Positions 28,932-61,331 of a stretch of 64,000 nucleotides of DNA are shown piece after piece. The notes under the pieces are model-generated. The model was given only the letters and a program-made list of their open reading frames with translations. It did no database searches and was not told the DNA's origin. The position numbers were made by a program, and so were the translations under genes. Each line of letters opens with the position of its first letter. Position 1 is the stretch's first letter. Source of the stretch: Hemileia vastatrix (lineage: Eukaryota; Basidiomycota; Pucciniomycetes; Pucciniales; Zaghouaniaceae). Location: assembly GCA_030280995.1 (NCBI GenBank), contig JASXTE010000001.1:15583106-15647105 (forward strand), in the 5' to 3' direction.

Positions 28932-29006
28932 GTATAATTAAATTCTCCGTAGTTCTCATTCTTTGGCACTACTACATCCTTTTTTCAGGTGTTTTAAATT
29001 CTTTAA

Positions 29007-30150
29007 ATGACATCAGATCAACGCACTCCTCCTATGGTCGCTACTACTAGGGCTTGCGCCAGAGGCAAGCCAACAGCCCCACAGCCTGTTTTCCGCACTC
29101 ACTCCCCGGAACATCTCCACCTTAGGGAACGGGGACACTCAGTCCAATCTGTAGAAGACATCCCCCAGGATTTTGATGATTCTAGCAATGAAGAAGAAGG
29201 AGAGGATACAATGCATGAGGCACCATCTGCCCCTGCTACTCAACCATCTGGTCAACCTTCAGAACCTGGATTATCTAATTCTCTGGAAGACTTCATGAGC
29301 CTTTTCATGAAAACCCTTTCCAATCTAACATCTTTGGAGGGATCAAAATTCAAAACTCCTTCCATGAAATCTCCTGATAAATATATGGAGAACATCCAGA
29401 CAGATTGCACCCCTTCTTGAAAACCTGCAAGCTTCTGTTCCATAACGACCAATCAAAGGTTGTTTATGCTTCTTCATTCCTAGCTGGAAAAGCAGAAAGG
29501 TGATTTGAACCTTATCTTCTCATGCTCTCTTCGACAGAAACCCATTTACTCATTATTAACTAAGAAAAATTTGAAGACCAACTCTTTACGTTGTTCAGTG
29601 ATCCTAATAAAACTGACAATGCGGAAATTGAACTTGATTTCCTTTGCATGAGTGATAATGGTAAAGCCTCTGAATATATCTCGAACTTCAGAGCACTTCA
29701 AACTCGAGTAGGTTAGAATGATGCTGCCCTCAAGTATCATTTTAAAAAGGGACTTCCTTTGAGGATTCTGGATCAATTAAATCTTCATGGTCAGAAGGTG
29801 ACTACTTTAACGGATTTAATGGATTGAACCCTTGAACTCGTTGGCTTTTACCAAGGACGACTACAAAATCTTCGATACACCAACAAATCTCAAGGCCTAA
29901 ATATTATATCCAGACCTTCTTCACACCCACAGACAACTCAATCAAAACTGAATAAGGGAAAGGACAAACCTCTATTGAAAGGCTTGACCCCAGGCAATAT
30001 CAGTAAGGTACTGGATCCAAAAGGGGAACTGAAAGAAGCTGAGATGAAGAGACGAGCAGATAATAGGCTATGTATGTATTGTGGGGGTAAGCACAAGCGA
30101 GAAGATTGTGTAAAGTTGAAGGAAAGAGAAGGTACTAGTTGAAGGTCAAA
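29007..30150 (+). pseudogene. Gag of element 3
   Basis: Starts with MTSDQRTPPMVATTRA, an Arg/Pro-rich N-terminus, then the conserved HSVQSVEDIPQDFDDSS and an acidic stretch. The capsid part (29410-29790) is in shifted frames. The CCHC knuckle CMYCGGKHKREDC is at about 30070-30110. At least three frame breaks. The counterpart in element 4 is 57087-58231. Gag would form the particle and bind RNA. Confidence 0.85.
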
Positions 30151-33100
30151 AAACTAGTAGATAGTTTACTTTTGTGCAAAGCAAACTATCTTATCTCTCA
30201 CAGCACACAGAATCTCCATGTCTTAAGGACAGGAGTTGCCTTAAACCACTTGAGATTCATTCTTTTCAAGGAGGATACCAACTTCAGTTGTCGTATAGAC
30301 TCTGGAGCTTCAATTTGTTTTGTCAGTTTATATTTTTCAGAGAAGTTAAACCTGACATTCACAGATATTGATTGAACTCCAATTTATTTGGTCGAATCAG
30401 AGGAACCCAAATATTGGGTAAGTAAGAAAGTTTTATGGGTTTTCAACTTTCCAAATTTTCCCCCTTCAAGTGGTAATTATCAGTCTTGGACGCCCCACAA
30501 ATAGAGAATACCATCATTGGCCATGACTTTTTAATGCATTGGAATCCTGAAATTGATTCGTGACAGGGATTGATCACCCCACACACTAAGTATATTTCTA
30601 ATTCTTCAATGCAGGTCAATAGGGAGTTAAACAACCCGCCTGACAATGTCCTGCTAGAGGGAAAATCTCTTCCAGATGGCTTGCAAGCATCTGATCTTTC
30701 TATAAATGAGCAATTGGATAACTCTTCTAGCTCAATCACTTCACTCAAAGAGGATTTAAATTGCCTAAAAGTAGTTGAATTATGCTCTCTCAATTCTGGT
30801 CTTCCCTTGACAGATACTCTTGAAGATGATGAGGACAACAAAATCAACATTGAAGCCATTATATCAACTCTATCGGAAATATATCATGATTTCATCAATG
30901 TTTTCTCAATCAGAAAGGCCGATAAGTTACCACCTCATCAAACCTTCAACCATCAAATAGAGTTAATAGGTCTAGTACCTCCTGCAGGTCCTGTCTATTC
31001 TTTATTGAAGGATGAATCTCAAGTTCTTCAAGAATACATTTCAGAGAATGTAGCCAAAGGTTTCATAAGAGCCAGTAAATCTCCAACCGGCTCCCCTGTT
31101 CTTTTTAAAAAGAAAAAAGACAGTAGCCTTAGTTTGTGTGTTGACTATAGAAAGCTCAACACAGTTACAAAGAAGATAGCATATCCAGTTCTTCCTATGT
31201 CATTGCTTCTTACCTTTTTTAATGGTGCTAATTTCTTTTCTAAAATTGATCTTAGAGGCTCTTAAAATCTTGTTTGCATTGCAGAAGGTCATGAACCACT
31301 GACTGCAATGCGCACTCTATTTGGTTGTTTTGATTATTTAGTCATTCCGTTTGGATTATGTAACGCACCATCTACTTTTCAGACTTTTGTTAATGACATC
31401 TTCAAGATGTTGTCAAACAATATGTTGTTGTATACTTAGACAATATTTTAATTTTCTCAAAGACACTAGATGAACATATTCATCATGTTTGACAGGTTCT
31501 AAATTGCCTTCAAGATCACGCTCTCTAGGCCAAGCACAATAAATGTAAATTTCATCTTAAATATTTTGATTTTTTGGGGTTTACCTTGTCCACTGATGGT
31601 TTAGTCATGGACAACAAAAAGGTCCAAAAAATCCTGGAATGGCCTGAGCCCAAAACCGTTAAATCCATCCAAGGAATTTTGGGTTTTGCCAATTTCTATA
31701 GATGATTTATTAAAGATTACTCTAAAACTATTTCCAATCTTACTTCTCTTATTAGAAAAGACAATCTTTTTGTTTTAACTTCTACAGCACAAAAGGAATT
31801 CGAAGCATTGAAGACTGCATTCACCACAGCTCCAATTCTTTGACACTTTAATCCTTCTGCTTTGACAATAGTCGAGACAGAAGCTAGCAATTATGCTATC
31901 GCAGGGGTCATTTCTCAATTCAATCCTGAAACAAAATTGTTTCATCCTGTTGCTTTTAAGTCACGCAAACTCATTGAGGAAGAATTAAATTATGAAATTC
32001 ATGACAAGGAGCTTTTAGCTATTATTCATTGTCTTAAAAAATGGCGCTCTTTTCTTCTCAGCCTAGATATTTTTTTTAAATCCTGACTGACCATAATTCT
32101 TTGAAATACTTTATGTCTTCTAAAGTGTTAACCAGGCATCAAGCCAGGTGGGCTGAATTTTTGTCTGAATTTCCTTTTTCTATTTCCTATTGCCCAAGTA
32201 AGAACTGCATTGTCCCAGATATCCTGTCACGTCAGGACAATGTTTACCCACAGCGGGGGGACACATTTGCTGACAAAAACCCAGCAAATGTGAAATCAAT
32301 TTTCAACAAATCAATGTTAATGGCACATCAACTTAATTCAATGACAATTCAATCTTTTCAAAATCCACTATCCAACATCCTCGAAGCTCAGTCAAAGGAC
32401 AATTATTGTTTAGGGAAAAAAGACAAAATACTCTCAAAGAAAGGGGCCAAAAGATTTAGTATTGAATCAGGTCTATTAGTTTTCAAAGGTAGAGTAGTCA
32501 TACCCAACAATAATAAAATAAAAGTTTGGATTTTAAATAGTTGACATGATTCTCCATTAGCTGGTCATTTTGGGGTTGATAAAACCTACCAGTTAATAGC
32601 AAGGGATTTCTTCTGGCCAGGAATGACCAGAAAAATCAAGGCCTATATTAGATCTTGTTACAAATGTAATAGGAATAAGGCTCTGCGTCACTGGAAGCAT
32701 GGGTTGCTTCAACCCCTTCCTATTCCTTCTAAACCTTGGGAATCTTTATCAATAGATTTTATTTCTTAACTTCCTCTTTTTAATAATTTTCATGCTATAT
32801 TAGTAATAGTAGATAGATTTTCAAAAATGTCTATTTTCATTAAAACCACTACTACTGCTACAGCAGAAGATTAGTCAAAATCGTTTCTAGAATATGTATT
32901 TTCCAAACATGGCTTAACTAATGATATTATTTCAGATAGAGGATCATTGTTTGTATTTACATTCTGCACTCATTTTTGTTGATAACTCAATATCATGAGG
33001 AATCTCTCCACAGCCTATCATCCTGAAACTGATAGGAAAACGGAAAGTGCCAACCGAATCCTCAAAAATACCTTTGAATGTATTTAAGTTACCAACAATA

Positions 33101-33800
33101 CAATTGGACCACATGGTTACCATTGGCCAAATTGGCTTATGATAACTTGACTCATTCTTTAACACAACAATCTCCTTTTGAAACTGTTTATGGAAGACAT
33201 CCTTGATTTAACTCAATCCATGTAGGAACTAGTCATCCTGCGGAACATTATCTTCGAACCATATCACCACTCCAAGAAGAACTTAAATAAAACTTTGAAT
33301 TAGAAACTCAAAGGTAAAAGGAACAGGCCAAAAAACATCAACAATCTGCTCCTTCCTTTAAACCAGGCAACAAAGTATGTCTCAACGCACAAAACATTTG
33401 AACAACTCGACCATCAAAGAAACTGTCTGAAAAATGCTTGTGACCATTCGAAATTGACTCCAAAGTCTCTAAAACTGCATTTCAACTCAAACTACCTCCT
33501 AAATGGCAGGCTATTCACCCTGTTTTCCACCTATCTCTCCTGGAACTGTCTCAAGAAACATACCTGGGTAGGAACCAACCTCCTCCTGAACTGGTTGAAG
33601 TAGAAGACCATCTAGAGGGGGAAGTAAGCTGTATCCTTGATTCAAGAATGTGCAAGGGGAAACTTCAATACCTCATGGAATGGGAAGGCTTCCTCGATGA
33701 CTCAGATAAAACATCCTGGTAACCAGCCGTCAATGTTTATAAGGCCCCTGAACTCCTAAAATCTTTTCATCTTAAATATTCTTTGAAACCAAAACCTTAG
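30139..33800 (+). pseudogene. Pol of element 3 (protease, RT, RNase H, integrase, chromodomain)
   Basis: Protease CRIDSGASICFVS is at about 30290. RT is read from [14 protein letters not shown] (31133) through [14 protein letters not shown] (31350) to VVVYLDNILIF (about 31430), where the second catalytic Asp of YLDD is Asn. RNase H is at 31862-32086 (AVAFKSRKL, HDKELLAII). Integrase has its zinc finger at about 32560-32670 (H, H, CYKCNRNK) and core Asp residues near 32755 and 32937. The chromodomain is at 33600-33770 (DSRMCKGKLQYLMEWEGF), which in chromoviruses targets integration to marked chromatin. Broken by more than ten stops and frameshifts. Confidence 0.9.
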
Positions 33801-34696
33801 AACTCTCTTTTATTTTTTCTCTTCTCTTCCCTATTCTCTTTTCTCTTCTCTTTCTTATTTCTATTCTTTTCTTAATATTCTAAAACTTCTTCTCTTCTAA
33901 AAAATCCTTACTCTGTTTTCTCTTTTCTTTATTCTTCTTCTCAAAAGCTTTTTTCAACCTTCTTTAAAAATAAATAAATAAATTAAATAAAATCAAATCA
34001 AATAGAATAAACTAAAATTAAATTAAATTAAAAAGTTAAAATTAAAAAATAAAATTAAATAAAATAATAAAAATAAAAATCTTAAAATTCATTAAAATAA
34101 AATCTTAAAAATCAATAATTCCTTTAATTTTCTTTTTTTTCTCCTTTCAAACTTTTCTTTATTTACCATACTTCTTTTTCTTCGAACTAACAAATAATTA
34201 CATGAACTCAATACGACAATCTTTCTCAAATATCACTCCAACCTTTAAATCTCTCTTTTAAAATTCTTTGAACAAGTTACTTCTTTCTTTCAAATTCTTT
34301 TTTTTTCAAAACAATTTTTCTTCTTTCTTATTCAAATAATCAAAATTCCTCCAAAACTTCAATAAATAAACTTTCACGAATAAGAAATTATTCTCTCATT
34401 AAATTTTAATTTCAAACAAAATTGTTTCAATCAACTATTTTTTTTCTTACATAAATTTTTCTATTCAAAACTTAAACTAAAATTTCCTTGGTTGAAAATT
34501 CTTTCTTTTCTTCTTTTGAAATTTAAAACAAAATTTTATTTATATCTTTTCTTTTTTCCTTTTTTCTTTTTCTTTCTCAAAATCTAATAAAATATATATA
34601 TCAAAATTCCAATTAAACAACAACAAAAAAAATAAATACACAAATTGCTTTCTACTTTTTTCCTTCCTGCTTTCTTTCTTTTTTTCTTTTTCCATT
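33801..34696. repeat. Polypyrimidine spacer between pol and the antisense gene, element 3
   Basis: About 900 bp almost wholly C/T-rich or A/T-rich on the pol strand (TTTTCTCTTCTCTTCCC-type runs), with no gene. The same kind of tract lies at the same place in elements 4 (52608-53396) and 5 (61332-62220). It separates two convergent 3' ends. Confidence 0.8.
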
Positions 34697-35634
34697 TCAA
34701 ATTTTCTCCTGTATTTTCTCCTGAAACAATTTCTTCATTTTTTCCAAAACCACCCTTACTTCCTTCATGCATTTCTCAAATACCTCCTCCTCTCCTACCG
34801 GTACCACTTCTCCAATCTCCAGTAATTCTTCTGCCACATTGAAGGAGGTGGCATCGACAATCTTGTCAACCTCACCGCTTAAATCTTCAATAAATCTAGC
34901 TTGTTGACCCTGCCAAGGTTTCTTCCACCATACCTGGTCAAGAGTTTCCTCGTTGTCCTCCCTTGAATCAATCACTGGTTGATTTTCCTTAACTGGAAGC
35001 AATGGCGCAGCTTACACAATTTGAGCTTCTGCAATGATATCTGAATTCTAAAACATATGGTCATCTGTAACAAAAATTTTTAAAAATAAAAGAAAAGCAG
35101 ACTTACTTCAAAAAATGGGTCAGCCTCTAAAAATAACTTCAGGGTGACCTCCACCTTCACTTCCTTCTCCTCTTCATCATCTTTGATGACCATCGGCTGC
35201 TTCTTTGGTATCTGCCTCAAGAGGGGGACTTCATCCTCATCCTCTTCCACCCCTTGTTTTTTACCAGTGGCCTGGCTTACCCAGGCTGCCACAGTATCCT
35301 CGACCTCCTCCTCAATCTCTTCCACCGACAGATTGTCCCAAACCAATACGTCCCAGATATCTTTGACCACCTCTTTGGTCCTTGGGATTACCCAGTATTT
35401 AGTTTTTGTAAATTGTTGTTCGATGTCCGCGTTTTTTTATAGGGCATCACATGTCACCTGTCTCCAGCCGCAAAACTTGCATTTCTGGAAAGGACCTTGT
35501 GTAGCCGTGCTTTCAACGTAAAAATATTCCATCGATTTTCAGGCCGTGCAGGCTTGAGAATATTGCTGGGTAACTATTCCACCATCTGCTTTGGGGTGTG
35601 GAGGCGTGGGAGTTGGGATAGCGCAAGTCGACAT
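34697..35634 (-). pseudogene. Antisense zinc-cluster-like gene of element 3
   Basis: Runs opposite to gag-pol from just inside the 3' LTR. ATG at 35634 (MSTCAIPTPTPPHPKADGG). The zinc module is CTAC...; the next arm is CKFCGWRQVTC, preceded by the TATQGP motif. It continues with a conserved FTKTKYWVIPRTKEVV box, an acidic stretch (EEIEEEVEDT), an intron (35048-35106), and a C-terminal helical domain with SGEVDKIVDATSFNVAEELL and FEKCMKEVRVVLEKMKK. Breaks: a TGA after CTA in the first arm and a TAA before KNADIE. A TATA box lies upstream at 35715-35721. Homologues with other breaks are in elements 4 and 5. The role is unknown; regulator of the element or of the host is inferred. Confidence 0.7.
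35048..35106 (-). other. Predicted intron of the element 3 antisense gene
   Basis: Minus strand GTAAGT...TTTTAG, 59 nt, phase 0, in exactly the same place as in elements 4 and 5. Confidence 0.65.
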
Positions 35635-35714
35635 AATAAATATAAAATAATTAAAAGAAGAGTTGAGAGAAAGTAGTGTGGAAAGAATATGTCTCACACT
35701 CAACAAAGCTTGCG

Positions 35715-35721
35715 TTTTATA
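35715..35721 (-). promoter_or_regulatory. TATA box of the antisense gene, element 3
   Basis: TATAAAA on the minus strand, 11 bp inside the 3' LTR and about 80 bp upstream of the ATG. The matching boxes are at 51543 (element 4) and 60309 (element 5). Confidence 0.65.
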
Positions 35722-35731
35722 CCTGGGCATC

Positions 35732-36541
35732 TGTCACGCGCCACGTGACACTAGAGGCAAAAGCAGCTCATTAAATCAAAAATATAGAGATCTAAATCCA
35801 TACTCAAAGCACAGAAAACAATTCTACATAGCAACTGCAACTTTCCTTTGTGTACTCACTATTCAACCGCGCTAGTCTAAACTTTAAATCTAAATTAGTG
35901 AATCTCTCAATAGTGTGTTTTAGTCTTTTCCTCTATAAGCAACACACAGCGCAATAGTTAATGTAATTGTCCGCTAAAAGGTTTTTTAAGTATCTGTGGG
36001 TTATTAAAAGGGGTAGTGACCATGGACGGGATGGTTAGTGGGGGATTAAAGGGGTAACAGATGTTAGTGAGGAGGGTCCAGGTGTAACAGGTGTATTTTT
36101 GGTGGTCTGTGGAGTGTGGAATGATGGATGGGTATGAGGTCAATGTGAGGAGGAGTAACGGATATAAAAGGGGTTGGATTGTAATTTGATATTCCTTTAG
36201 AATTAAATTATAAAACATATATTTAGTTAATAGTGGTAAAGCTTCAGGTTAAATCATTATTATTGTATCTTTCCTTATTTTCTTCAGTAATCATTTCTAA
36301 ATCCTAAATCTTTGATTATTGAGTTTCCAACCCTTTGTGAGATCTTAAGAATATTAATATTAACTTTAAATTATATTAGAATTCTTATTGAACATATCTC
36401 AAAGCAGCAGCTCTTCCTTCGAGTCATCTTTGAATCACTTCCTTGAACATTTCCTCTGTGCTTTGAAGAAGTTTCTAAACTACTCTCTCCATCTCACTTC
36501 CAGGAACACCCTCAACCTTGTGCGTAGGTTATCTGGTGACA
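35732..36541 (+). repeat. 3' LTR of element 3
   Basis: 810 bp, paired with 28122-28931. It starts with the terminal palindrome TGTCACGCGCCACGTGACA (35732-35750), which contains CACGTG, and ends GGTGACA before the GGTCC duplication. Confidence 0.95.
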
Positions 36542-47360: not shown

Positions 47361-50300
47361 TTGGGGGCAGAATTATCTTCAAAAGTCTCTAGAAACTCAA
47401 ATCTTGGGGAACAGTATAGCCAAATAATTATGTGGCAGGCAGAAAAGCTTTCTCTGATTCATCATTTGAGCAAAGAAAGTTGTACTCAATTTTTGGATGA
47501 AGAAATTAAGAGGCTCAAACTTCTAGGTGATAGTGGAAGACTGGATTCTTATAGCCTTGTCCGCTTTATTCCATGCTCAATAGATACAGTTTTTAGTTGA
47601 TTAAAGCTCAAGCAATCATTTTTTACAAAAAATTCTATCCTAAATGCTTTGCTCTTAATGAGTATAACTTTGAATCTCCACCATCTATATTATCTTGCAA
47701 TCAACCGTTTTTTTCATCATCAAAGCACTATTTAAAAATTTTTGGAGCAGGACAAATTTATAGTTAAATTTGATGAATGTCTGTATTTTATGGAGGAACA
47801 TCAAGAACTTGTAAAATACTATTCTCTTAAAACATTTCATCACAATTGTTATATTGACTGGCTTAAGGAAGAGATCAAACTGTTCAAATTTGAGCTTCTG
47901 ATTGAGAATAAAACCCCTGTGGCAGACAATGTAGAGTGTGATTTGATGAAGGATGTTTGTGATGGTCCAATTTGTAAAACTTTTCCATTACCACTCCAGC
48001 TCTGGGTGGCAATGTTGACAAATATAGGATAAATTCAGGCAACTTTATGTTTACTTTATATGTCGACTGGTTTAGGCCTAGTGGTAAAAGGATTGGAGGT
48101 CATCAGAAGTCTGTAGGCAATATTTTAATGTTGTGTATGAACCCATCTCAAGAAGATAGATACAAGATGGAAAATATTTTTTTGTATGCTATTATACCTG
48201 GACCAACAGAACCCACAAGTGAACAGCTTAATCACCTTCTTAAACCGCTGGTTAATGATCTACAAGCTCTATGGGATGGTATATTTATTGAAAAGACGCA
48301 TCTTTATCAAAGAGGCCACAAATTAAGAGTTTCATTTTTCTCCTTGATAAGTAACATTCCTGCAATACAAAAATTGGCTGGCTTTTTGAGTCACTCTGCC
48401 AGAATGTTCTGCTCTTTCCGCAATATTTCTAAAGATGAAGTTAGTGAAAAGAATGTGGTAAATTTTTCATTAAGGAATTATGAGGATCATATGTTCTAGG
48501 AAACAAAGTGGAAAAATTCTAAGTCACATTGGGAGCACATATCAATTGTTCAGAATCATGGGGTACAATGGAGTGAGCTGAATAACCTTGAATATTGGAG
48601 TCCAACTGAATATTGCTCAATTGATGTTATGCATTCACATATGCTTGGCAACCTAAATAATCACAGTATAAGTTATTTTCAAATCCAAATTGCAGCAAAA
48701 GATGTAGAAAGAAAGCTGTAAAAGGATAAAAATTGGTATGTAAGAGAAGAAGATGACAATTTATTTTATGATACTTCACTGCATAAACATTCTAATAAAT
48801 GTAGAAGTAGCTTAAGCACCACAAAAAATGATGATGATGATACAGGACACACGAGACAGCACAAGCGGCAAAGACTTACAAGTTCAAGAAAGTCATCAAG
48901 TCATCATTGAATAGATAGTGAAGGATTGGGAACAAATTGATCAAGAAGCCAGAGTAGTTCATCCAGCTCCAAATTTATTCCTCCATATAGCAATTTGGCC
49001 TCATTACAGTCTTACAGAAGTGGCAGTAGGAATTCATTGTATAACTTAAGGCAACAGAGCATTAGCATATTAAAGAGTGAAGGATTTCACTTATCAAATG
49101 AGACAGCTAGAGATGATCAAAATAAAAGGAAAGGTAAAGAGAAATAGAAAGAACATGAAGTTAGTAGTAATCCACAAATCACAGTAGCAGAGCTACAGGT
49201 TGTATGGAAGATAATTGATCAAGTAAGAATAACTTCCTGGCTAACAAAAGTTCCAAAATCAGTAGGATCTAAAAAGGCAGGATCCCTCAAGGCAGCAGAA
49301 TGGCAGATGCTGTATACTATCTACTTCCCTTTGTTACTTATACCCCTTTGGTTTGAAAAATTTAAAGAATCTGAATCTTCAGCTTCCTCAGCTGAAAAAC
49401 TAAAAGAATATTATCTTCTCAAGTAACTTGTAACATTATGTTTGATCACCAATTTTTGACATTAAAAAATATACAGACTAATGAGATTAAAGATCTAGAT
49501 CAATTTCTGTTAGAGTATCGTGAGTTCCTGGAAGAGGTTTGGAAGAATATTAACGCAAATCCAAATCTGCATATCACTCAACATTATCCTGAAATGATAA
49601 AGCGTATTGGTCCACCATCAGGTACAGCTACTCGGTCTGGAGAGCAGGTGAATCATATATTATCTGAATTTCCAAACAATCACCATCCATGCATGTAATT
49701 TTTGAAAGCAATGATTTAAAAACTCAGCTGTGCTGATTTATTAATATTGAACACAGGAGAGATATTGCTAACAATGATAAAACATTGGTATTGGAAGTCT
49801 AGGGTATTAGATCTTGGTGAAGCTGAAGATAATGATCAATGTGAGACTAAAAAAATTTATATTGATCTTGATAAACAAAACAAATGGATTCATCTAAGTA
49901 TGGCATTATTTACTATATGGGTAAGGGCACAAATGGGAAAAGAAACTTCAAGATGAGCTTTGAAACCATTAGAGAAAAGTGGGGATCTGGTAGTTGAAAA
50001 TGTAGCAAGCATATTGATACATAGAAAGAGGTTTACTAGTTGCCATTGACACATTGCTAATTCAAAAATTGAATTCTACTATGGAAAAGATAGCCAGTTA
50101 GGGAAAATTGATGATCTTTTCAGGTCAAAGGAAGAGAATGATCAAATCTATTTAATAGTAAGTTCTTTCAAGGAGCTTCCTCCAGAAAAAAAATCAAGGA
50201 TCCTTATGAGCTTTTCCCACAAGTGCATTTTCAGTTAGTAAGAGTAGCCAAATTAACTCAAATTGTGATTAAGAAAGATGCAATAATTGTAAATGCAGCT

Positions 50301-50638: not shown

Positions 50639-50728
50639 TGTCACTGGAAGACCTACTCACAAGGTCGAGGGTTTTCCTAGAAAGTGAGATGGAGGGAGGA
50701 GTTTAGTGACTTCTTTGAAGTACAGGGG
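50639..50728 (-). repeat. Old LTR X, first fragment
   Basis: Starts TGTCACTGGAAGACC and resembles the first 90 bp (plus-strand order) of the element 4/5 LTRs, then stops at AGGGG, where element 4 is inserted. The rest of the LTR resumes at 59114. Confidence 0.75.
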
Positions 50729-51532
50729 TGCCACCGGATGACCTGCGCACAAGGTTGACGATGTTCCTGCAAGTGAGATAAAAGATTCAGATACTTCTTT
50801 GAAGCACAGAGGGATTGTTTGAGGAAGTGATTCGAAGATGACTCGAAGGAAGAACTACTTCTTCGAGTTATGTTCCAGAAGGATTCTAATATATTTAAAC
50901 GGTAATATTAAAATTCTTAAGATCTCACAAAGGGTTGGAAACTCTACAATTAAAGATTTAGGATTTAGATATGATTATTGAGAAAATAAAGAAAGATACA
51001 ATAATAATGATTTTCACTTAGAGTTGTATCACTATTAACTTATAAATACATTTTATACTTTAATTCTAAGGAATGTCGAACCAAAAACGCAGCCCCTTTT
51101 ATATCCTTTACTCCTTCTCACATTGACCTCATACTCATCCACCATTCCGCACACCACAAACCATTTAAAATATATCTGTTACACCTGGACCCTCCTCACT
51201 AACATCCGTTAACCCCTTAATCCTTCACTAACCATTCTGTCCATGCTCACTACCCCTTAATAACCGCAGACATTTCATTAACCCTTTTAATGTACTATTA
51301 TATTAACTATTGCACTGTGAGTCGCTTATTGGGAAAAAGACTAAGACACACTATTGAGAGATTGACTAATTTAGATTTAGAGTTTTAGGCTAGCTCGATT
51401 GAATAGCGAGTACACAAAGGATAGTCGCAGTTGCTATGGAGAGTTGCTTTGTGCGCTTCGAGTATGGGTTTTGACCATTTAGTATTGATTTAATGAGCTA
51501 CTTTTGCCTCGAGTGTCACGTGGCGCGTGACA
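50729..51532 (-). repeat. 3' LTR of element 4
   Basis: The outer end is altered to TGCCACC from TGTCACC. The inner end carries the palindrome TGTCACGTGGCGCGTGACA at 51514-51532. Confidence 0.95.
51514..51532. promoter_or_regulatory. LTR-edge palindrome with CACGTG, upstream of the antisense TATA box
   Basis: TGTCACG-TGGCG-CGTGACA: 7-bp arms around a 5-bp centre, with an E-box-like CACGTG inside. The equivalent sits at 28122-28140, 35732-35750, 59095-59113 and 60280-60298. It is at once an integrase-recognised LTR end and, for the 3' LTR, the sequence about 30 bp upstream of the antisense start region. Confidence 0.6.
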
Positions 51533-51542
51533 GATTCCGGGG

Positions 51543-51548
51543 TATAAG
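51543..51548 (+). promoter_or_regulatory. TATA box of the antisense gene, element 4
   Basis: TATAAG, 10 bp inside the LTR and about 95 bp upstream of the ATG at 51639. Confidence 0.6.
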
Positions 51549-51638
51549 AACGTGAGCTCCGTTGAGCGTAAAACATATTTCCCACACTAATTTCCCTTCC
51601 TCTTTACTTAATTATTAATTTTATTACTTTGAATCACT

Positions 51639-52607
51639 ATGACGGATTTCCCTACACCAACTCCCACGCCTCCACACCCTAAAGTGGATGGGGGTGTTGT
51701 CACACGGCAATTTTCGAAGACTTGCACGGCTTGCGAGTCGATGGAGTATTTTCGCGTGGAGAGCACGGCAACACAAGGGCCTCACCAGAAGTACAAGTTT
51801 TGCCGATGGAGAAGAGTGGCATGTGACGCCTTAGCAAAGAATGCCAACATTGAGAGTCGGTTTACGAAGACAAAGTATTGGGTGATCCCTAAAACAAAGG
51901 AAGTAGTCGAGGACATTTGGGATGTGTCCATTGGGGACGATCAATCGGTGGGGGAAAATGAGGAAGAAGTTGAAGATGATGTGAACATCTGAGTGGCTAG
52001 GTCTGCGAACAAGAGGGGGGTTGTTGAGGAGGAAGAAGAAATTCCCATCTCGAGGAAAACCCTGAAAAAGCAACGGGTGGTCATTGAAGATGACAAAGAG
52101 GAAAGGGAGGTGGCAGAGAAGGTCACTCCTAGATTGTTTTTGGAGCCTGACCCAGTCTTCAAAGTAAGTTCACCTTTTTATAATTTATAAATTTAATTAC
52201 TGATGATTCTGTTTTAGAATTCAGACGTCATCATCGAGGTCCCTACAACAGAAGCTTCAAATGTGGAAGCGACCCTTGTGGGACCCACTGCGGTGGAAGT
52301 GGCAATGTTGGTGGAGGATAGATTACCAACTGTTACCTCCAGGGAGGAAATTGAAGAAACCCTCAATCGAGTATGGTTGAAGAAACCTCGTCAGGTTCGA
52401 CGAGCAAAATATATTGAAGAATTGAGCAGCGAGATTGATAAAATTGTCGATGCCGCTTCCTTCGACGTAGCCGAGGAGTTACTTGAACTTGGGGAATTGA
52501 TTCCGGTAGGAGAGGGGGAGAACTTTGAGAAATGTAGAAAGGAGATTAGGGAAATTTTGGAGAAGATGAAAGGATTGGTTCGGGAGAAGATAAAAGATAA
52601 AATTTAA
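51639..52607 (+). pseudogene. Antisense zinc-cluster-like gene of element 4
   Basis: MTDFPTPTPTPPHPKVDGGV start; first arm CTACESMEYF followed by Arg where element 5 keeps Cys; second arm Y-KFCRWRRVAC with one Cys changed to Tyr. Then FTKTKYWVIPKTKEVV, an acidic stretch, a TGA at 51990-51992 where element 5 has Trp, and the intron at 52164-52217. Exon 2 (52218-52607) reads through EIEETLNRVWLKKPRQVRR, SSEIDKIVDAASFDVAEELL, GENFEKCRKEIREILEKMKG to the stop, with no break. Comparison with elements 3 and 5 shows the same domains but different lesions. Likely a nuclear, zinc-dependent regulator; unproven. Confidence 0.75.
52164..52217 (+). other. Predicted 54-nt intron of the element 4 antisense gene
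   Basis: GTAAGT donor, CTGAT branch-like site, TTTTAG acceptor; joins ...DPVFK to NSDVII in frame (phase 0). Confidence 0.7.
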
Positions 52608-53396
52608 AATAAAAAGAGAGAAGGAAAAAAGAATGTAGAAACAATTTGTATTTAATTATTTTACTTTGTTATTTTATTTTATTTTATTATTTTTTTTTAT
52701 TATTTTATTTTATTATTTTTTATATAAGATTTTGAGAGAAAGAAGGAAAAGACAGAAAAAAGATTTAAATAGAATTTGTTTTAAGATTTTGAAAGAAGAA
52801 GTTTAAATGAGAAAAAAAAAGAAAGAATATTTGATTAAGAAGAAAGAAAGAAGAAATAAATAATTGATTGAGATAATTTAAGAGAGAAAAAATAAAATAA
52901 ATTGTTATTTAAGTTTGGTAATTGAAGATTTGAGGGATTTTAGTTATTTGAAAGAAGAAAAGAAAGAAAAGAAGAGACAAAATAAAAATTCTGAGAGGAT
53001 TTTGAAGAAAGAAGTAATTTGTTTCAAAGAATTTAAAAAGGTGATTTGGAAGTTAAAGTGAAGTTCGAAAAAGATGATAGTGTAATGTTCGTGAAGAATT
53101 TTGATAGTTCTAGGAAAATAAAATTTTAAAGAAGGATGTATATAGAAAACTGAGAAGAAATTTTTTTTATTTTTTATTTGTTTTATTTTTATTTTATTTT
53201 AATTTTGTTTTTATTTTATTTTATTATTTTTATTTTATTTTATTTTACTTTTATTTTAATTTAATTTAATTTAATTTTTTTTATTTTTTTATTTTTATTT
53301 TATTTTATTTTTTTTAAAAAGAAGGTTAAAGGATTTTGAAAAGAGAAAGAATAAAGAAGAAAACAAAAGGATTTTTTAGAAATAAAAATGTTTTAG
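52608..53396. repeat. Polypurine/polypyrimidine spacer, element 4
   Basis: On the plus strand dominated by GAAAGAAGAAA and ATTTTATTTT runs, counterpart of 33801-34696. It contains no gene and lies between the converging ends of pol and the antisense gene. Confidence 0.8.
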
Positions 53397-56300
53397 ATTT
53401 TTAAAAAAAAGAAAAAAACAGAGAAAAGATAAAGAGAGTTTTGAGGTTTTGGTTTTAAAGGGTATTTAAGTTGATAAGATTTTAGGAGTTCAGGGGCGTT
53501 AGAAACATTGATGGCTGGTTCCCAGGATGTTTTGTCTGAGTCATCGAGGAAGCCTTCCCATTCCACGAGGTATTGAAGTTTCCCCTTGCACATTCTTGAA
53601 TCAAGGATACGGCTTACTTCCCACTCTAGATGGTCTTCTACTTCGACCGTTTCCAGAGGAGGTTAGTTCTTGCCGGGTATGTTTCTCGAGCTAGTTCCAG
53701 GAGAGATACCTGAAAAACAGGGTGAATAGCCTGCCATTTAGGAGGTAGCTTGAGTCGAAATGCAGTTTTAGAGACTTCAGAGTCGATTTTGAATAGCCCC
53801 AAGCGTTTTTCAGCCAGTTTCTTTGATGGTCAAGTTGTTTGAATGTTCCGTGCGTCAAGCCATATTTTATCACCTGGTTTAAAAGGAGGAGCAGTTTGTC
53901 AATGTTTGTCAGCCTCTTCCTTGTACCTTCGAACCGCTAATTACAGATTTGATTTAAGTTCCTCTTGGAGTTGTGATATGGTTCGAAAATGATGTTCCGC
54001 AGGATGATTAGTTCCTACATGTATGGAATTGAATCGAGGATGTCTTCCATAAACAGTTTCAAAAGGAGATTTTTGTGTCAAAGAATGAGTCGAGTTATTA
54101 TAAGCAAATTTGGTCAATGGTAGCCATGTGGTCCAATCGTCTTGTGGGTAACTGACATACATTCGAAGGTATTGTTCGAGGATTTGGTTGACCCTTTCTG
54201 TTTTCCCGTCGGTTTTGGGATGATAGGCTGTGGGGAGGTTCCTCGTGATACTGAGTTGTCAACACAGTTGAGTCCAGAATGTGGATACAAAAAATGAGCC
54301 TCTATCTGAAATAATATCATTAGGTAAGCTGTGTTTGGAAAATACATATTTGAGAAACAATTTTGACAGACCTTCTGCAGTAGCAGTAGTAGTGGTTTTA
54401 ATGAAAGTAGACATTTTTGAGAATCTATCTACTATTACTAATATAGCATCAAAATTATTAAAAAGAGGATGTTGAGAAATAAAATCCATTGATAAAGATT
54501 CCCAAGGTTTAGAGGGAATAGGAAGTGGTTGAAGCAACCCATACTTCCGGTGACGGGGAGCCTTATTCCTATTACATTCGTAACAAGCTTTTATATAGGT
54601 CTTGATTTCCCTGGTCATACCTGGCCATAAAAAATCCCTCGCTATTAACTGGTAGGTTTTATCAACCCCAAAATGAACAGCTAATGGAGAATCATGTTGA
54701 CTGTTGAAAATCCATAATTTTATCTCATTATTGTTGGGTATGACTACTCTACCTTCGAAGACTAATAGACCTGATTCAATACTAAATCTTTTGGCCCCTT
54801 TCTTCAAGAGTATTTTGTCTTTTAACCCTAAACAATAATCGTCCTTCAACTGAGCTTTGATGATGTTGGATCGTGGATTTTGAAATGATTGAATTGTCGT
54901 CAAATTAAGTTGATGTGTCGTTAAAATTGATTCATTGAAGATTGATTTCACATTTGCTGGTTTTTTGTCAGCAAATGCGTCCCCCCGCTGTGGGTAAATG
55001 TTGTCCCGACGTGACAAGATATCTGGGACAAAGCAGTTCTTACCTGGGCGATAGGAAATAGAAAAGGGAAATTTAGACAGAAATTAAGCCCTACTTGCTT
55101 GAAGCCTGGTTAAAACTTTGGAAGACATAAAGTATTTCAAAGCATTATGGTCTGTTAAAATTTGAAAAGGACTATCTAAGCTGAGAAGAAAAGAGCGCCA
55201 TTTTTTAAGACAGTGAATAATAGCTAAAAGCTCTTTGTCATGAATTTCATAATTTAACTCTTCTGAAAAGAGTTTGTGTGACTCAAAAGCAACAGGATGA
55301 AACAGTTTTGTTTCCGGATTCAATTGAGAAATGACACCTGCGATAGCATAATTGCTTCCATCTGTCTCGACTATTGTCAAAGCAGTAGGATCAAAGTGTT
55401 GAAGAATTGGAGCTGTGGTGAATGCCGTCTTCAATGCTTCGAATTCCTTTCGTGCTGTAGAATTAAAAAAAAAAGGAATATCTTTTCTAAGAAGAGAAGT
55501 AAGATTGGAAATAGTTTTAGAGTAATCTTTAATAAATCTTCTATAGAAATTTTCAAAACCCAAAAATACTTGGAGTGATTTAACAGATTTGGGCTCAGGC
55601 CATTCCAGGACCTTTTGAACTTTTTTGTTGTCCATGACTAAACCATCAGTGGATAATTTAAAACCCAAAAAATCAATAGATTTAAGATAGCATTCGCATT
55701 TATTATTCTTGGCGTAGAGTCCATGACCTCAAATTAGATTTAAAACCTGTCGAACATGATGAATATGTTCATCCAGTCTCTTCAAGAAAATTAAAATATC
55801 ATCTAAATAGACGACAACAAATAGTTCAACAACATCTTGAAAGATGTCATTGACAAAAGTTTGAAAAGTAGATGGTGCGTTACACAATCCAAAAGGCATA
55901 ACTAAATATTCAAAACTACCAAATCTAGTGCGCATTTCAGTCAGTGGTTCATGACCTTCCGCAGTGCGAATAAGATTGTAAGCGCCACTAAGATCAATTT
56001 TAGAAAAGAAATTAGCACCATTAAAAAGGGTAAGAAGCAATGAAATAGGAGGAACAGGATATGCATTCTTCTTAGTGACTGTGTTGAGCTTTCTATAGTC
56101 AACACACAACCTAAGACTACCATCCTTCTTTTTTACAAAGAGGACAGGGGAGCCGGTTGGAGATTTACTGGCTTTGATGAAACCTTAGGCTACATTCTCT
56201 GCAATGTAGTCTCGAAGAACTTGAGATTCGTCCTTCGACAAAGAATAGACAGGACCTGCCAGAGGTACTGGACCTATTAACTCTATCTGATGGTCGTAGG

Positions 56301-57072
56301 GTCAATGAGGTGGTAACTTATCAGCCTTTTGGATTGAAAAAACATTGAGGAAATCATGATAGATTTCTGGTAGAGTCAATTTAATGGCTTCAACGTCAAT
56401 TTGTTCATCCTCATCATCTTCAAGAGAATCTGTTGAGGGAAGACCAGAATTGAGAGCGCATAATTCGATTACTTTGAGGCAATTTAAATCCACTTCAAGT
56501 GAAGTCATCGAGCTAGAAGGGTTAGCCAATTGCTCATTTAAAGAAAGGTCAGATGCTTGCAAGTCATCTGGCAGAGATTTGTCCTCTAGCAGGACATTTT
56601 CCGGCGGGTTTTTTAATTCCCTATTGACATGCATTTAAGAATCAGAAATATACTTAGTGCATGGGGTGATCAATCCCTGTGTCCAACCAATTTCAGGATT
56701 CCAATGCGTTAAAAAGTCATGGCCAAGAATGGTATCGTCCATCCTTGGGGCGTCCAAGACTGATAATTACCACTCGAAGGGGGGAAAGTTCGGAAAGTTG
56801 AAAACCCATAAAACTTTCTTCCTTACCCAATATTTGGGTTTCTCTGATTCGACCAAATAGATCGGAGTTTGATCAATATCTGTAAATGTTAGTTGAAGCT
56901 TCTCAGCAAAAGATAAACTAGCAAAAGAAATTGAAGCTCCAGAGTCTATAAGACAACTGAAGGGGATATCCTCCTTAAAAAGAATGAATCTCAAGCGGTT
57001 TAAGGAAACTCCAGTCCTTAAGACATGGAGGTTCTGTGCACTGGGAGAGATAAGATAGTTTGCTTTGCACAC
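53397..57072 (-). pseudogene. Pol of element 4
   Basis: Protease CLIDSGASISFAS at about 56965. RT from [14 protein letters not shown] (about 56110) through [15 protein letters not shown] to [11 protein letters not shown] (YLDD at 55798-55809, intact). RNase H at 55300-55200 (HDKELLAIIHCL) with tether PGKNCFVPDILSRRDN. Integrase zinc finger HDSPLAVHFGVDK...CYECNRNK (about 54700-54560), core Asp in SMDFISQ and SDRGSFF, Glu in GKTERVNQ. Chromodomain at 53590 (MCKGKLQYLVEWEGFLDDSD). Stops at about 56764, 56637, 56300, 56188, 55727, 55081 and 54257 break it. Confidence 0.9.
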
Positions 57073-57086
57073 AAGTAAACTATCTA

Positions 57087-58231
57087 CTAGTTTTTTGGCT
57101 TTGAACTAGTACCTTCTCTTTCCTTCAATTTTACACAATCTTCCAGCTTGTGCTTACCTCCACAATACATACATAACACATTATCTGTTCGCCTCTTCTT
57201 CTCAGCTTTTTTAAGTTCCCCTTTAGGATCCAGTACTTTACTGATATCGCCTGGGGTCGAGCGTTTCGGTCGAGGTTTGTCCTTTCCCTTAATAGCTTTG
57301 GATTGAGTCAAGGAGGATTGAGTTGTTTGTGGGTGTGAAGAAGGACCCAATTTGTTGGTGTATTGACGATGTTGAAGTCGTCCTTGGTAAAGGCCGTCAA
57401 GTTTGAGAGTTTGATACATTAAATCTGTTAAAGTAGTCATCTTCTGACCGTGAAGATTTAACTGATACAGAATCGTCTAAGGAAGTCCTTTTTTGAAATG
57501 ATACTTAAGGGCAGCATCATTCCAACCTACTCGAGTTTGAAGCACTCTGAAGTTCGAGATATATTCAGAGGCTTTCCCATTATCACTCATGTAAAGGAAA
57601 TCAAGTTCAATTTCTGCGTTGTCAGTTTCATTAGGGTCACCAAACAACGTGAAGAGTTTGTCTTTGAACTTTTCCCAGTTATTAATGAGTAAGTGGGTTT
57701 CGGTTGAAGAGAGCATGAGAAGATAAGGTTCAAACCATCTTGCTGCTTTTCCGACCAGGAATGAAGAAGCTTAAACAACATTTTATCGGTCATTATGGAA
57801 CAGGAGCTTGCATGTTTGCAAGAAAGGTTGCAATCTGTCTGGATTTTCTCCATTGAATTTATCAGGAGATTTCATAGTAGGAGTTTTGAGTTTAGATACC
57901 TCTGAAGACGTTGAATTTGAAAGGGTCTTCATGAAAAGTCTCATGAAATCTTCCAGAGAATTGGATGGTCTAGGTTCTGAAGGTTGACCAGAAGGTGGTT
58001 AGCAGGGGCGGATGGTGCCTTGTGCACTGTATCCTCTCCTTCTTCATCATCACTAGAATCATCGAAATCTTGTGGGATGTCTTCTACCGATTGGACTGAA
58101 TGTTGCCGTTCCCTAAGATTGAGTGGCTCCAAGGAGTGAGTGCGTGAAACAGCCCTAGTGGCTGTTGGCCTGCCTCTGGCGCGAGCTCTAGTAGTAGCGC
58201 CTGTAGGAGGAGTGCGTTGAACAGGTGCCAT
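57087..58231 (-). pseudogene. Gag of element 4
   Basis: MAPVQRTPPTGATTRARARG start; HSVQSVEDIPQDFDDSSDDE; capsid core with FKDKLFTLFGDPNETDNAEI and YISNFRVLQTRVGWNDAALK; CCHC knuckle CMYCGGKHKLEDC near 57150. A frameshift near 57990 and a TAG near 57478 interrupt it. Confidence 0.85.
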
Positions 58232-58308
58232 TTTAAGAATTTAGAGAAAACACCTGAAAAGGGACATAGTAGTGCAAAGAATGAGAGCTACGGAGAATTA
58301 AATAATAC

Positions 58309-59113
58309 TGTCACCGGACAACCTATGCACAAGGTCTAGGATGTTCCTGCAAGTGAGATAAAAGATTCAGATACTTCTTCAAAGCATAGAGGGATTGTTT
58401 GAGGAAGTGATTCGAAGATGACTCAAAGGAAGAACTACTGCTTCGAGTTATGTTCGAGAAGGATTCTAATATATTTGAACGGTAATATTATAATTCTTAA
58501 GATCTCACGAAGGGTTGGAAAATCAAAAATCAAAGATTTAGGATTTAGATATGATTATTGAGAAAATAAAGAAAGATACAATAATAATGATTTTCACTTA
58601 TAGTTGTATCACTATTAACTTATAAATACGTTTTATAATTTAATTCTAAGGAATGTTGAACCAAAAACCCAGCCCCTTTTATATCCTTTACTTCTCCTCA
58701 AATTGACCTCATACTCATCCACCATTCCGCACACCACAAACCATTTAAAATATATCTGTTACACCTGGACCCTCCTCACTAACATCCGTTAACCCCTTAA
58801 TCCTTCACTAACCTTTCCGTCCATGCTCACTACCCCTTAATAACCCACAGACATTTCATGAACCCTTTTAATGTACTATTATATTAACTATTGCGCTGTG
58901 AGTCGCTTATTGGGAAAAAGACTAAGACACACTATTGAGAGATTGACTAATTTAGATTTAGAGTTTTAGGATAGCTCAATTGAATAGCTAGTACACAAAG
59001 GAAAGTCGCAGTTGCTATGGAGAGTTGCTTTCTGCGCTTCGAGTATGGGTTTTGACCCTTTAGTATTGATTTAATGAGCTACTTTTGCCTCGAGTGTCAC
59101 ATGGTGCGTGACA
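58309..59113 (-). repeat. 5' LTR of element 4
   Basis: Partner of 50729-51532, differing by a few tens of substitutions by eye, many of them CG against TG or CA. Confidence 0.95.
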
Positions 59114-59493
59114 AGGGGAAATATTCGAAGAAGTGACTCAAAGATGAGTCGAAGGAGGAGTTGCTTCTTTGAGATATGTTTGATATGAATCTCAATATAA
59201 TTTAAAGGTAATATTAATATTCTTAGAATCTCACAAAGGGTTGTAAACTCAATAATCAAAGATTTAAGTTTTAGAAATGATTACTGAGAAAATAAGGAAA
59301 TGTACAATAATAATGATTTAACTTGAAGCTTTACCACCATTAACTATATATATGTTTTATAATTTGATTCTAAAGAATTTTGAACCAAAATTTAATACCT
59401 TTTATATCCACTACTACTCCTCGCATTGACCTCACACCCATCCATTATTCTGCACACCAAAGACCTCCAAAAAAACACCTGTTACACCTGGAC
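59114..59493 (-). repeat. Old LTR X, second fragment
   Basis: Resumes with AGGGGAAATATTCG where 50728 stopped and runs to TACACCTGGAC, where element 5 starts. The remainder lies beyond element 5, outside the window. Confidence 0.75.
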
Positions 59494-60298
59494 TGTCACC
59501 AGAAGACCTAGGCACAAGGTCGAGAGAGTTCCTGGAAGTGAGATGGAGAGAGTTTAGAAATTCTTCAAAGCACAGAGGAAATGTTTGAGGAAGTGACTTG
59601 AAGATGACTTGAAGGAAGAGCTACTGCTTTGAGATATGTTCGATAAGAATTCTAATATATTTTAAGGGTAATATTAATATTCTTAAGATCTCAAAAAGGG
59701 TTGGAAACTCAATAATCAAAGATTTAAGATATAGAAATGATTACTGAGAAAAGTAAGGAAAGATACAATAAAAATGATTTAACCTAAAGCTTAACCACTA
59801 TTAACTATGTATACGTTTTATAATTTAATTCTAAAGAAATATCAAACCACAATCCAACCCCTTTTGTATCGATTACTCCTCCTTGCATTGACCTCATACC
59901 CATCCATCATTCCCCACACCACAGACCACCAAAATACACCCGTTACACCTGGACCCTCCTCACTAACATTGGGTAACCTTTTAATCCTCCACTAACCATC
60001 CCGTCCATTCTCACTACCCCTTTTAATAACCCACAGATACTTAATAAGCCTTTTAGCGGACTATTACATTAACTATTGTGCTGTGTGTTGCTTTTTGAGG
60101 AAAAGACTAAAACACACTATTGAGGGATTGACCAATTTAGATTTAAAGTTTAGACTAGCCCTGTTGAATAGTGAGTACACAAATGAAAGTTGCAGTTGCT
60201 ATGTAGAGTTGTTTTCTGTGCTTCGAGTATGGATTTAGACCTCTGTATTATTGATTTAATGAGCTGTGTTTGCCTCGAGTGTCACGTAGCGCATGACA
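59494..60298 (-). repeat. 3' LTR of element 5
   Basis: TGTCACCAGAAGACC to GCGCATGACA; the inner-edge palindrome at 60280-60298 has its CACGTG decayed to CACGTA. Confidence 0.92.
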
Positions 60299-60308
60299 GA
60301 TGCACGGG

Positions 60309-60396: not shown

Positions 60397-61331
60397 ACGT
60401 TGACTTGTCCTACCCCAACTCCCACGCATCCACACCCCAAAGCAGATGGTGGTATGGTTACCCAGAAATATTCTCAAGCCTGCACAGCCTGTGAATCAAT
60501 GGAATATTTTTGCATCTAAAGTACGGCTACACAAGGTCCTTGCCAGAAATGCGAGTTTTGCCGCTGGAGATGAGTGACGTGTGATTCCCTATCAAAAAAC
60601 ACGGACATCAAACAACAATTTACAAAAACTAAATACTGGGTAATCCCAAAGACCAAAGAGGTGGTCAAAGATATCTGGGACGTATTGGTTTGGGACAATC
60701 AGTCGGTGGAAGAGATTGAGGAGGAGGTCGAGGATACTGTGGCAGCCTGGGTAACCCAGACCACTGGTAATAAACAAGGGGTGGAAGATGAGGTAGATGA
60801 GTTGGTTGAAGAGGATGAGGATGAAGTCCCCATCTTGAGGCAGAAGCCAAAGAAGCAGCCAATGTTCATCGAAGATGATAAAGAGGAGAAGGAAGTGACA
60901 GTGAAAGTCACACTAAAGTTATTTATAGAGGCTGACCCATTTTTTGAAGTAAATCTGCTTTTATTTTATTTTAAAAAAATTTGTTACTGATGACCATATG
61001 GTTTAGAATTCATATTTCATCGCAGAAGCTCCAATTTTGAAAGCTGCACCATTGCTTCCAGTTGAGGAAAATCAAACAGTGATTGATTTGGGGGAGGAAA
61101 ACGAAGAAACACTTGACCAGGTATGGTCGAAGAAATCTTGGCAGGGTCAACGAGCTAGATTTATCAAAGATTTAAGTGGTGAGGTTGACAAGATTGTCGA
61201 TGCCACCTCCTTCAATGTGGCAGAAGAATTAAGGAGAGGGGGAGGCATTTGAGAAATTCAGAAAAGAAATAAGGGTGGTTTTGGAAAAAATGAAGAAATT
61301 GGTTCAGGAGAAAATACAGGAGAAAATTTGA
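60397..61331 (+). pseudogene. Antisense zinc-cluster-like gene of element 5
   Basis: The start codon is ACG at 60397-60399 where elements 3 and 4 have ATG. First arm complete, CTACESMEYFC; a stop follows two codons later, then CQKCEFCRWR with a TGA. The FTKTKYWVIPKTKEVV box, a long acidic stretch (EEIEEEVEDT, VDELVEEDEDEVP) and the intron (60949-61006) follow. Exon 2 starts like element 3 (VEENQTVIDLGEENEETLDQ) but has a deletion near 61230 that shifts the frame before the conserved FEK...LEKMKK helix. This copy best preserves the cysteine pattern. Confidence 0.7.
60949..61006 (+). other. Predicted 58-nt intron of the element 5 antisense gene
   Basis: GTAAAT donor (weakened), CTGAT near the end, TTTAG acceptor; same position and phase 0 as in elements 3 and 4. 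Confidence 0.6.

What the first reader, a model, noticed from the sequence alone, without database searches (positions are those of the whole stretch)
51514..52607. A spliced gene for a zinc-cluster-like protein carried antisense inside a chromodomain gypsy family
Seen: three independent copies (34697-35634, 51639-52607, 60397-61331) lie between chromodomain and 3' LTR, opposite to pol, with a shared TATA box, one intron at the same place and the same domain order. Lesions differ among copies, so the shared frame is ancestral. Known: antisense ORFs between integrase and the 3' LTR are reported for some plant Ty3/gypsy elements (Grande, Tat lineage), and antisense proteins exist in some retroviruses. 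Inference: this is a fungal case with its own promoter and a DNA-binding-like product, perhaps controlling the element or silencing.
Basis: partly seen in the sequence, partly recalled or inferred. Interest (0 to 1): 0.87.

Follow-up and report, generated by a model that had tools for sequence, protein, structure and literature searches.

The report
Spliced antisense gene in rust retrotransposons
A family of jumping genes that is very numerous in a rust fungus carries, on its opposite strand, a small gene with an intron that natural selection keeps working and whose DNA block has a different history from the element around it, most likely a control gene for the element itself.

Summary
The focal Ty3/gypsy chromodomain element (50729-59113, minus strand, LTRs of 804/805 bp, AGGGG on both sides) carries an antisense gene: TATA at 51543, exon 1 51639-52163, a 54-nt intron, exon 2 52218-52607. 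The window has three damaged copies; the 747-Mb host genome, a rust fungus by its nearest named relatives, has thousands of candidate places. Of 20 copies picked only by an LTR-edge/TATA 22-mer, 20 carry the gene, 19 keep GT and 20 keep AG. In those 20, pN/pS is 0.22 (exon 1) and 0.37 (exon 2), against 0.9-1.4 in the shifted same-strand frames, and a strand test shows that the antisense frame is the constrained one. Intact copies encode about 300 aa with six cysteines in Zn2Cys6-like spacing, but Pfam's zinc-cluster cut-off is not met and no homologue was found. New here: gene, intron, leader and spacer form a cassette far more diverged between element types than LTR or pol. Antisense accessory genes are known (plant Grande/Retand, fungal Boty brtn, HTLV HBZ), so this is a new variant. 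A regulatory role is inferred; transcription was not testable.

The parts
50729..59113 (-). Ty3/gypsy chromodomain LTR retrotransposon, focal copy (gag-pol on minus strand)
   Evidence: LTR pair 94.7% identical; Chromo E 1.2e-13, Integrase_H2C2 E 2.7e-18; AGGGG at 50724-50728 and 59114-59118, read from the sequence
50729..51532 (-). 3' LTR (sense TATA near 51100; the U3 part lies between the sense TATA and the antisense TATA)
   Evidence: sense TATA at LTR position 431 of the 5' LTR
58309..59113 (-). 5' LTR
51543..51548 (+). TATA box of the antisense gene, 10 bp outside the 3' LTR
   Evidence: 22-mer spanning LTR edge and TATA: 3066 places with up to 1 mismatch, reversed control 0; conserved columns
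51639..52163 (+). antisense gene exon 1 (six-cysteine region; this copy has TGA at 51990-51992 and lacks two of the six cysteines)
   Evidence: pN/pS 0.22 in 20 copies picked without reference to the gene
52164..52217 (+). intron (GTAAGT...TTTTAG); unspliced, this copy's frame stops inside it
   Evidence: GT in 19 of 20 and AG in 20 of 20 of those copies
52218..52607 (+). antisense gene exon 2, with stop
   Evidence: pN/pS 0.37 in the same 20 copies; mostly helical in a low-confidence model
51555..53430 (.). cassette: leader, exons, intron and AT-rich spacer, between the antisense TATA and the end of the chromodomain frame; edges approximate (left 51554-51614, right 53420-53450)
   Evidence: identity between types steps down inside; between/within divergence 4.5-11.2 inside against 1.24-2.4 outside
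53393..53662 (-). chromodomain end of pol
   Evidence: Pfam Chromo
34697..35634 (-). second copy of the antisense gene (type B) in the element at 28121-36541
60397..61331 (+). third copy of the antisense gene (type B; start codon lost, stops and a frameshift), next to the LTR at 59494-60299

Best explanation
It is a true accessory gene of this chromovirus family. It is read antisense to gag-pol from a TATA promoter beside the 3' LTR (with the U3 of that LTR as upstream region: inferred), spliced once (inferred from conserved sites), and translated into an acidic protein of about 300 aa with a six-cysteine putative zinc motif, a PKKRRV-like basic patch and a probably helical C-terminus. Shown: the gene's anatomy, its presence in the copies sampled, protein-level purifying selection, the coding strand, and the different divergence of the cassette. 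Inferred: a nuclear nucleic-acid-binding regulator of the element, most likely one that limits or times sense transcription from the LTR, working like HTLV HBZ or as proposed for Grande gene23. The intron can survive retrotransposition because it is spliceable only from the antisense RNA, which is not the genomic RNA (inference).
For: pN/pS 0.218 (95% codon bootstrap 0.18-0.26) in exon 1 and 0.366 (0.30-0.44) in exon 2 over 20 copies picked without reference to the gene. Type A-B dN/dS 0.075 and 0.175. Type C copies, picked by pol only: 0.190 and 0.193, against 0.291 or 0.395 for pol of the same copies in two delimitations. Exon-2 variants seen in a single copy are near neutral in A and B (0.97, 1.13) while shared variants are not (0.47, 0.38). 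Changes silent in the antisense frame but altering the open reverse frame occur at 0.388 per opportunity; the opposite class at 0.052. TATA and splice sites largely kept.
Against: No transcript data could be searched. No homologue among 5.8 billion proteins (word-limited search), PDB or viral contigs, so function rests on anatomy. Zn_clus is far below its cut-off. Structure models are of low confidence (mean pLDDT 44.7 and 35.7). The direction of any control is unknown. Within type A, A-A exon-2 dN/dS is as high as 0.695, which I read as decay after insertion.
Confidence: 0.55

Rival explanations
1. The protein is a real accessory factor but not a transcription regulator: a nucleic-acid chaperone, nuclear-import or integration-site factor that helps the element jump.
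For: Same selection data; the motif could as well bind RNA (inference).
Against: A structural factor needed in particles would usually be read from the sense RNA with gag-pol; a separate antisense promoter and intron fit a regulator made from resident copies better (inference).
Confidence: 0.27
2. The antisense RNA itself is the agent (dsRNA, small RNAs, interference), and the protein matters little.
For: PMC7264820 raises this for plant elements (passages); an antisense transcript over the 3' region would pair with genomic RNA.
Against: Protein-level, frame-specific selection in both exons and on the antisense strand in exon 1; an RNA role would not keep reading frame and codons.
Confidence: 0.08
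3. The conserved frame is on the sense strand; the antisense frame is its shadow.
For: A sense-strand frame of up to 218 aa overlaps exon 1 in type C copies; that reverse frame has A-B dN/dS 0.167 and only 23 stops in 20 copies, against 18 in the antisense frame.
Against: Class test: silent-in-antisense changes 0.388 per opportunity against 0.052 for silent-in-sense; start, TATA, intron and exon 2 fit the antisense strand.
Confidence: 0.02
4. The between-type divergence of the 3' block reflects a higher mutation rate there, not a different history.
For: Within types the gene also has 2-3 times the synonymous diversity of pol; third positions are richer in GC than in pol (0.47-0.51 against 0.32-0.35).
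Against: The between/within ratio, in which a constant rate cancels, is 11.1 (95% bootstrap 7.4-18.2) for the gene and 1.75 (1.0-3.7) for pol at 4-fold sites using transversions only, which CpG decay does not make; intron and spacer give 8.8 and 4.9, LTR 1.8, or 2.4 without one rearranged copy.
Confidence: 0.1

Closest known systems
brtn of Boty-like elements, Botrytis cinerea (Zhao et al. 2011; original not held, seen only as cited in passages of PMC7264820, PMC8365987 and PMC4227169)
   Same: Fungal element whose gag-pol bears a CHROMO domain (PMC4227169 passage), with an extra gene antisense between pol and 3' LTR (PMC7264820 section 5)
   Different: Ascomycete host; sequence not compared here; splicing, promoter and domains of brtn not seen by me
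Antisense aORFs of plant elements: Grande gene23, RIRE2, Retand TRP28
   Same: Antisense between pol and 3' LTR; for Grande a promoter upstream of gene23 and a nuclear protein (review passages and cited title); for Retand present in 97% of clusters, suspected DNA binding (PMC11963269 passages)
   Different: Plant elements (Retand is a non-chromovirus lineage); TRP28 domain not found here; no cassette exchange in the passages read
HBZ / APH-2 of HTLV
   Same: Spliced antisense transcript starting at the 3' LTR; HBZ down-regulates sense transcription (PMC3185765 passages)
   Different: Retrovirus; bZIP protein (APH-2 without); starts in R/U5 of the LTR, whereas here the TATA lies just outside the LTR; function here not shown
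Fungal Zn2Cys6 transcription factors (PF00172)
   Same: Six-cysteine spacing
   Different: Score below cut-off; first half lacks the usual basic residues (consensus recalled)

Membership tests
LTR retrotransposon with chromodomain (chromovirus) | Two LTRs, target-site duplication, pol with integrase followed by chromodomain | tested here: met
[quoted passage not shown]
   20 of 20 (conditional on the LTR-edge/TATA 22-mer) and 8 of 8 sampled copies
[quoted passage not shown]
   no RNA data or cell assay
Boty brtn | Sequence homology to brtn | not tested
   brtn sequence not at hand; the profile search of proteins found nothing at E<=1, but whether brtn was among them is unknown
Retand/Grande TRP28 proteins | PF04195 domain | tested here: not met
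   no such match among Pfam hits up to E 10 in 4 proteins
Zn2Cys6 binuclear cluster (PF00172) | Profile score above the gathering cut-off of 21 bits | tested here: not met
   9.9 and 10.1 bits in two exon-1 proteins, no hit in the third
Zn2Cys6 binuclear cluster (PF00172) | Six cysteines in the family's spacing (spacing rule recalled) | tested here: met
   invariant in 10 of 10 aligned exon-1 proteins; 17-19 of 19 readable random copies at each position; whole pattern in 47 of 68 loci, decayed ones included
HBZ-type regulators | Spliced antisense transcript from the 3' LTR that represses sense transcription | not testable with these tools
   only anatomy agrees (intron, position)

The most novel reading that the evidence does not exclude
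The 3' block is an immunity-like cassette: a self-regulator with its own control sites, which element lineages replace as a unit, so that a backbone with a new cassette escapes the control set up by resident copies and founds a new family, as heteroimmune phages do with repressor and operators.
Probability: 0.12. Interest if true: 0.88.

Novelty: new variant of a known kind. Interest (0 to 1): 0.66.

Why it matters
Antisense accessory genes of LTR elements have been noted in plants and a few fungi without a known function. Here is a system with thousands of candidate copies in one genome, at least three deeply diverged versions of the gene on nearly the same backbone, and measurable selection, in which the question can be tested: which sites each version binds, and whether versions cross-regulate. 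It also suggests a simple way in which a retroelement can keep an intron-bearing gene: put it on the strand that is not the genomic RNA. If cassette replacement founds new families, it bears on how rust genomes were repeatedly flooded by retrotransposons.

Tried and rejected
Sense-strand coding was considered because a reverse frame is open and shows low dN/dS; the class test rejected it. A claim that B and C backbones descend from A (A paraphyletic in the FastTree) was dropped: holding A together is not rejected (p-AU 0.50). Type labels agree with the pol tree, so the discordance is in depth, not in branching; repeated cassette swapping was not seen in the 28 pol rows kept.

Structure prediction from three window sequences per exon gave unusable models, so no fold search was run. 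Homologue searches found nothing. An early guess that the host is Gigaspora was dropped when the nearest named integrases were those of Puccinia sorghi and Austropuccinia psidii; the species is not identified.

Limits. Types A (30 loci) and B (30 loci) were picked by protein likeness, which lowers dN within them; L001 and L031 are the window's own copies. The C set and the 20 random copies were not picked by the gene, but the 20 depend on the LTR-edge/TATA 22-mer; they come from the first 100 listed of 3066 places, 18 on one contig and 2 on another. Pol rows lost: B_L046 had no hit; B_L032 and B_L048 (181 and 97 bp only) were left out; L032 and L048 were also left out of the gene set (11 A, 10 B, 8 C). 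L032 was kept although its LTR side is rearranged, which lowers BB and AB there near the LTR; L068, also odd on its LTR side, was kept and taken out in a repeat. The pol frame (A, B and second C row), 44 and 77 has 196 codons, of which 16 lie past the usual stop; its A and B ratios are high (0.617, 0.595), and in A shared pol variants give 1.24 (7 silent, 31 altering), opposite to the gene. Exon-1 singletons give 0.41 (A) and 0.75 (B), not 1. Among the random copies L092 lacks the gene start and L099 looks chimeric or truncated; both were kept. Codon pairs with a stop or gap were skipped in dN/dS counts.

Full report
WHAT IS THERE. The focal feature lies in a chromodomain Ty3/gypsy element at 50729-59113 with pol on the minus strand. 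LTRs at 50729-51532 and 58309-59113 are 94.7% identical; AGGGG stands on both outer sides. Pfam finds Chromo and integrase domains on the minus strand. On the plus strand, between the chromodomain and the 3' LTR, are a TATA box (51543), an ATG (51639), exon 1 to 52163, a 54-nt intron with GTAAGT and TTTTAG, and exon 2 to the stop at 52605-52607. This copy has TGA at 51990-51992 and lacks two of six cysteines. Two other copies lie in the window at 35634-34697 (minus) and about 60397-61331 (plus); tblastn finds no fourth.

HOST AND COPY NUMBER. The window is part of a 747.6-Mb genome of 791 contigs. The nearest named integrases are from Puccinia sorghi (53% identity) and Austropuccinia psidii (47%); some unnamed entries are nearer (58% over the whole query). 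So the host is very probably a rust fungus; the species was not determined. Exon-1 queries of types A, B and C gave 6039, 5852 and 6897 candidate places (overlapping, only the best 150 scored each). The 22-mer across LTR edge and TATA occurs 1564 + 1502 times with up to one mismatch; the reversed control 0. For type C, about 140 of the 150 listed places have no stop in the 183-aa exon 1 (counted by eye; these are the best scoring, so biased).

SAMPLES NOT PICKED BY THE GENE. Eight elements chosen by integrase match and long pol frame all carry the gene (8 of 8), as a third type, C, with the six-cysteine pattern in 7 of 8. Twenty places of the 22-mer all carry it (20 of 20); donor GT in 19, acceptor AG in 20. 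They fall into A, B, C and further types. Of the 60 type A and B loci, 57 have the LTR end 60-160 bp before the expected gene start; donor GTAA is kept in 59 of 60 and acceptor AG in 54 of 60 (counted by eye).

SELECTION. In the 20 random copies pN/pS is 0.218 for exon 1 (codon bootstrap 0.18-0.26) and 0.366 for exon 2 (0.30-0.44); the shifted same-strand frames give 0.91-1.41. Between types A and B dN/dS is 0.075 and 0.175, with dS near saturation; within A and B it is 0.17-0.28 in exon 1 and 0.41-0.70 in exon 2. In the C set it is 0.190 and 0.193, against 0.291 or 0.395 for pol of the same copies in two delimitations. Exon-2 singletons are near neutral in A and B (0.97, 1.13), shared variants are not (0.47, 0.38); exon-1 singletons give 0.41 and 0.75, shared 0.20 and 0.37. 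In the C set singletons too are below one (0.22-0.26), as expected if these are young copies. One reverse frame also has low A-B dN/dS (0.167) and few stops (23 against 18 in 20 copies). The class test separates the two: changes silent in the antisense frame and altering in that reverse frame 909 per 2341 opportunities (0.388), the opposite class 272 per 5226 (0.052), counted over pairs of the 20 copies in exon 1.

THE PROTEIN. Intact exon 1 gives about 183 aa with a conserved PTP-rich start, six cysteines (C-x2-C-x6-C-x12-C-x2-C-x6-C), a conserved tryptophan-bearing middle, acidic stretches and a PKKRRV patch that resembles a nuclear signal (recalled, not tested). The six cysteines are invariant in 10 of 10 chosen undamaged proteins. 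Pfam Zn_clus reaches only 10 bits against a cut-off of 21, on a half-motif, so membership in Zn2Cys6 is not met. No homologue was found among 5.8 billion proteins (the second search scored the 7988 candidates sharing most words), in PDB, or in viral contigs. AlphaFold models from three window sequences are of low confidence; exon 2 looks helical.

THE CASSETTE. Types A, B and C share pol closely (chromodomain and integrase part on average 87-90% identical between types), but between a point just beyond the TATA and the chromodomain end identity between types is mostly 0.6-0.75. Between-type over within-type divergence, transversions only: gene 4-fold sites 11.2, intron 8.8, spacer 4.9, leader 4.5; pol 4-fold 1.75, LTR 1.8, TATA region 1.24; bootstrap 7.4-18.2 for gene and 1.0-3.7 for pol. 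Without one copy with a rearranged LTR side (L068) the LTR value is 2.4 and the spacer still 4.9. A different constant rate would cancel in this ratio. So cassette and backbone have different ages: either cassettes were brought in from distant elements, or backbones were homogenised between types. The pol tree groups by type, so any exchange would predate the spread of each type; repeated exchange was not seen.

MECHANISM. Shown: a selected antisense gene with conserved splice sites, in a block with its own history. Inferred: U3 of the 3' LTR lies between the sense TATA (LTR position 431) and the antisense TATA, and could serve both directions; the product would be a nuclear regulator. The intron can persist because the genomic RNA carries it in the unspliceable sense. 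By analogy with HBZ, which down-regulates sense transcription (PMC3185765, passages), and with Grande gene23, I hold a regulator of sense transcription most likely (0.55), other accessory roles next (0.27).

RELATION TO WHAT IS KNOWN. [quoted passage not shown] PMC11963269 (passages) finds antisense TRP28 genes in 97% of Retand clusters and suggests DNA binding. PMC12210899, on rust transposons, holds none of the terms antisense, chromodomain or chromovir- in its main text. Searches for antisense with retrotransposon, rust fungi and chromodomain gave one paper, on Leptosphaeria effectors by its listing; for fungal LTR retrotransposon with antisense, open reading frame and zinc finger none; for modular recombination with antisense and accessory gene one, on non-coding RNAs by its listing. 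Only open-licence full text was searched, so absence from print is not established. Verdict: new variant of a known kind.

Noticed in passing
window 51533-51560 and the same place in the copy at 28121-36541: No purine-rich tract on the sense strand directly before the 3' LTR (last 12 nt 50% purine in two copies); the antisense TATA sits there instead. How plus-strand DNA is primed is unexplained.
   Followed up: partly
window 58262-58308 and LTR position 467: The sequence after the 5' LTR shows no plain tRNA primer site; 10 nt of it in the focal copy complement the LTR 36 nt after the sense TATA, as in self-priming elements. The second copy has only a 7-nt match.
   Followed up: partly
G000:C34:28896407-28920417: Four integrase hits at 7730-7731-bp spacing with the same score, which suggests a head-to-tail array of whole elements; other close pairs occur at 7.9, 8.6 and 15.4 kb.
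   Followed up: no
window 59124-60299: A partial LTR (59124-59493) and a full LTR (59494-60299) follow the focal element directly: nested or abutting insertions.
   Followed up: no
window 47978-48499: Fragment of a tnp2-type (Transposase_21) DNA transposase.
   Followed up: no
window 51514-51532: The edge of the 3' LTR is an inverted repeat, TGTCACG-N5-CGTGACA; well conserved among 51 LTRs compared. A possible binding site.
   Followed up: no
G000: 39033 candidate integrase places, and among the 141 scored several pol frames open over 900-1237 aa: the family looks recently active.
   Followed up: no
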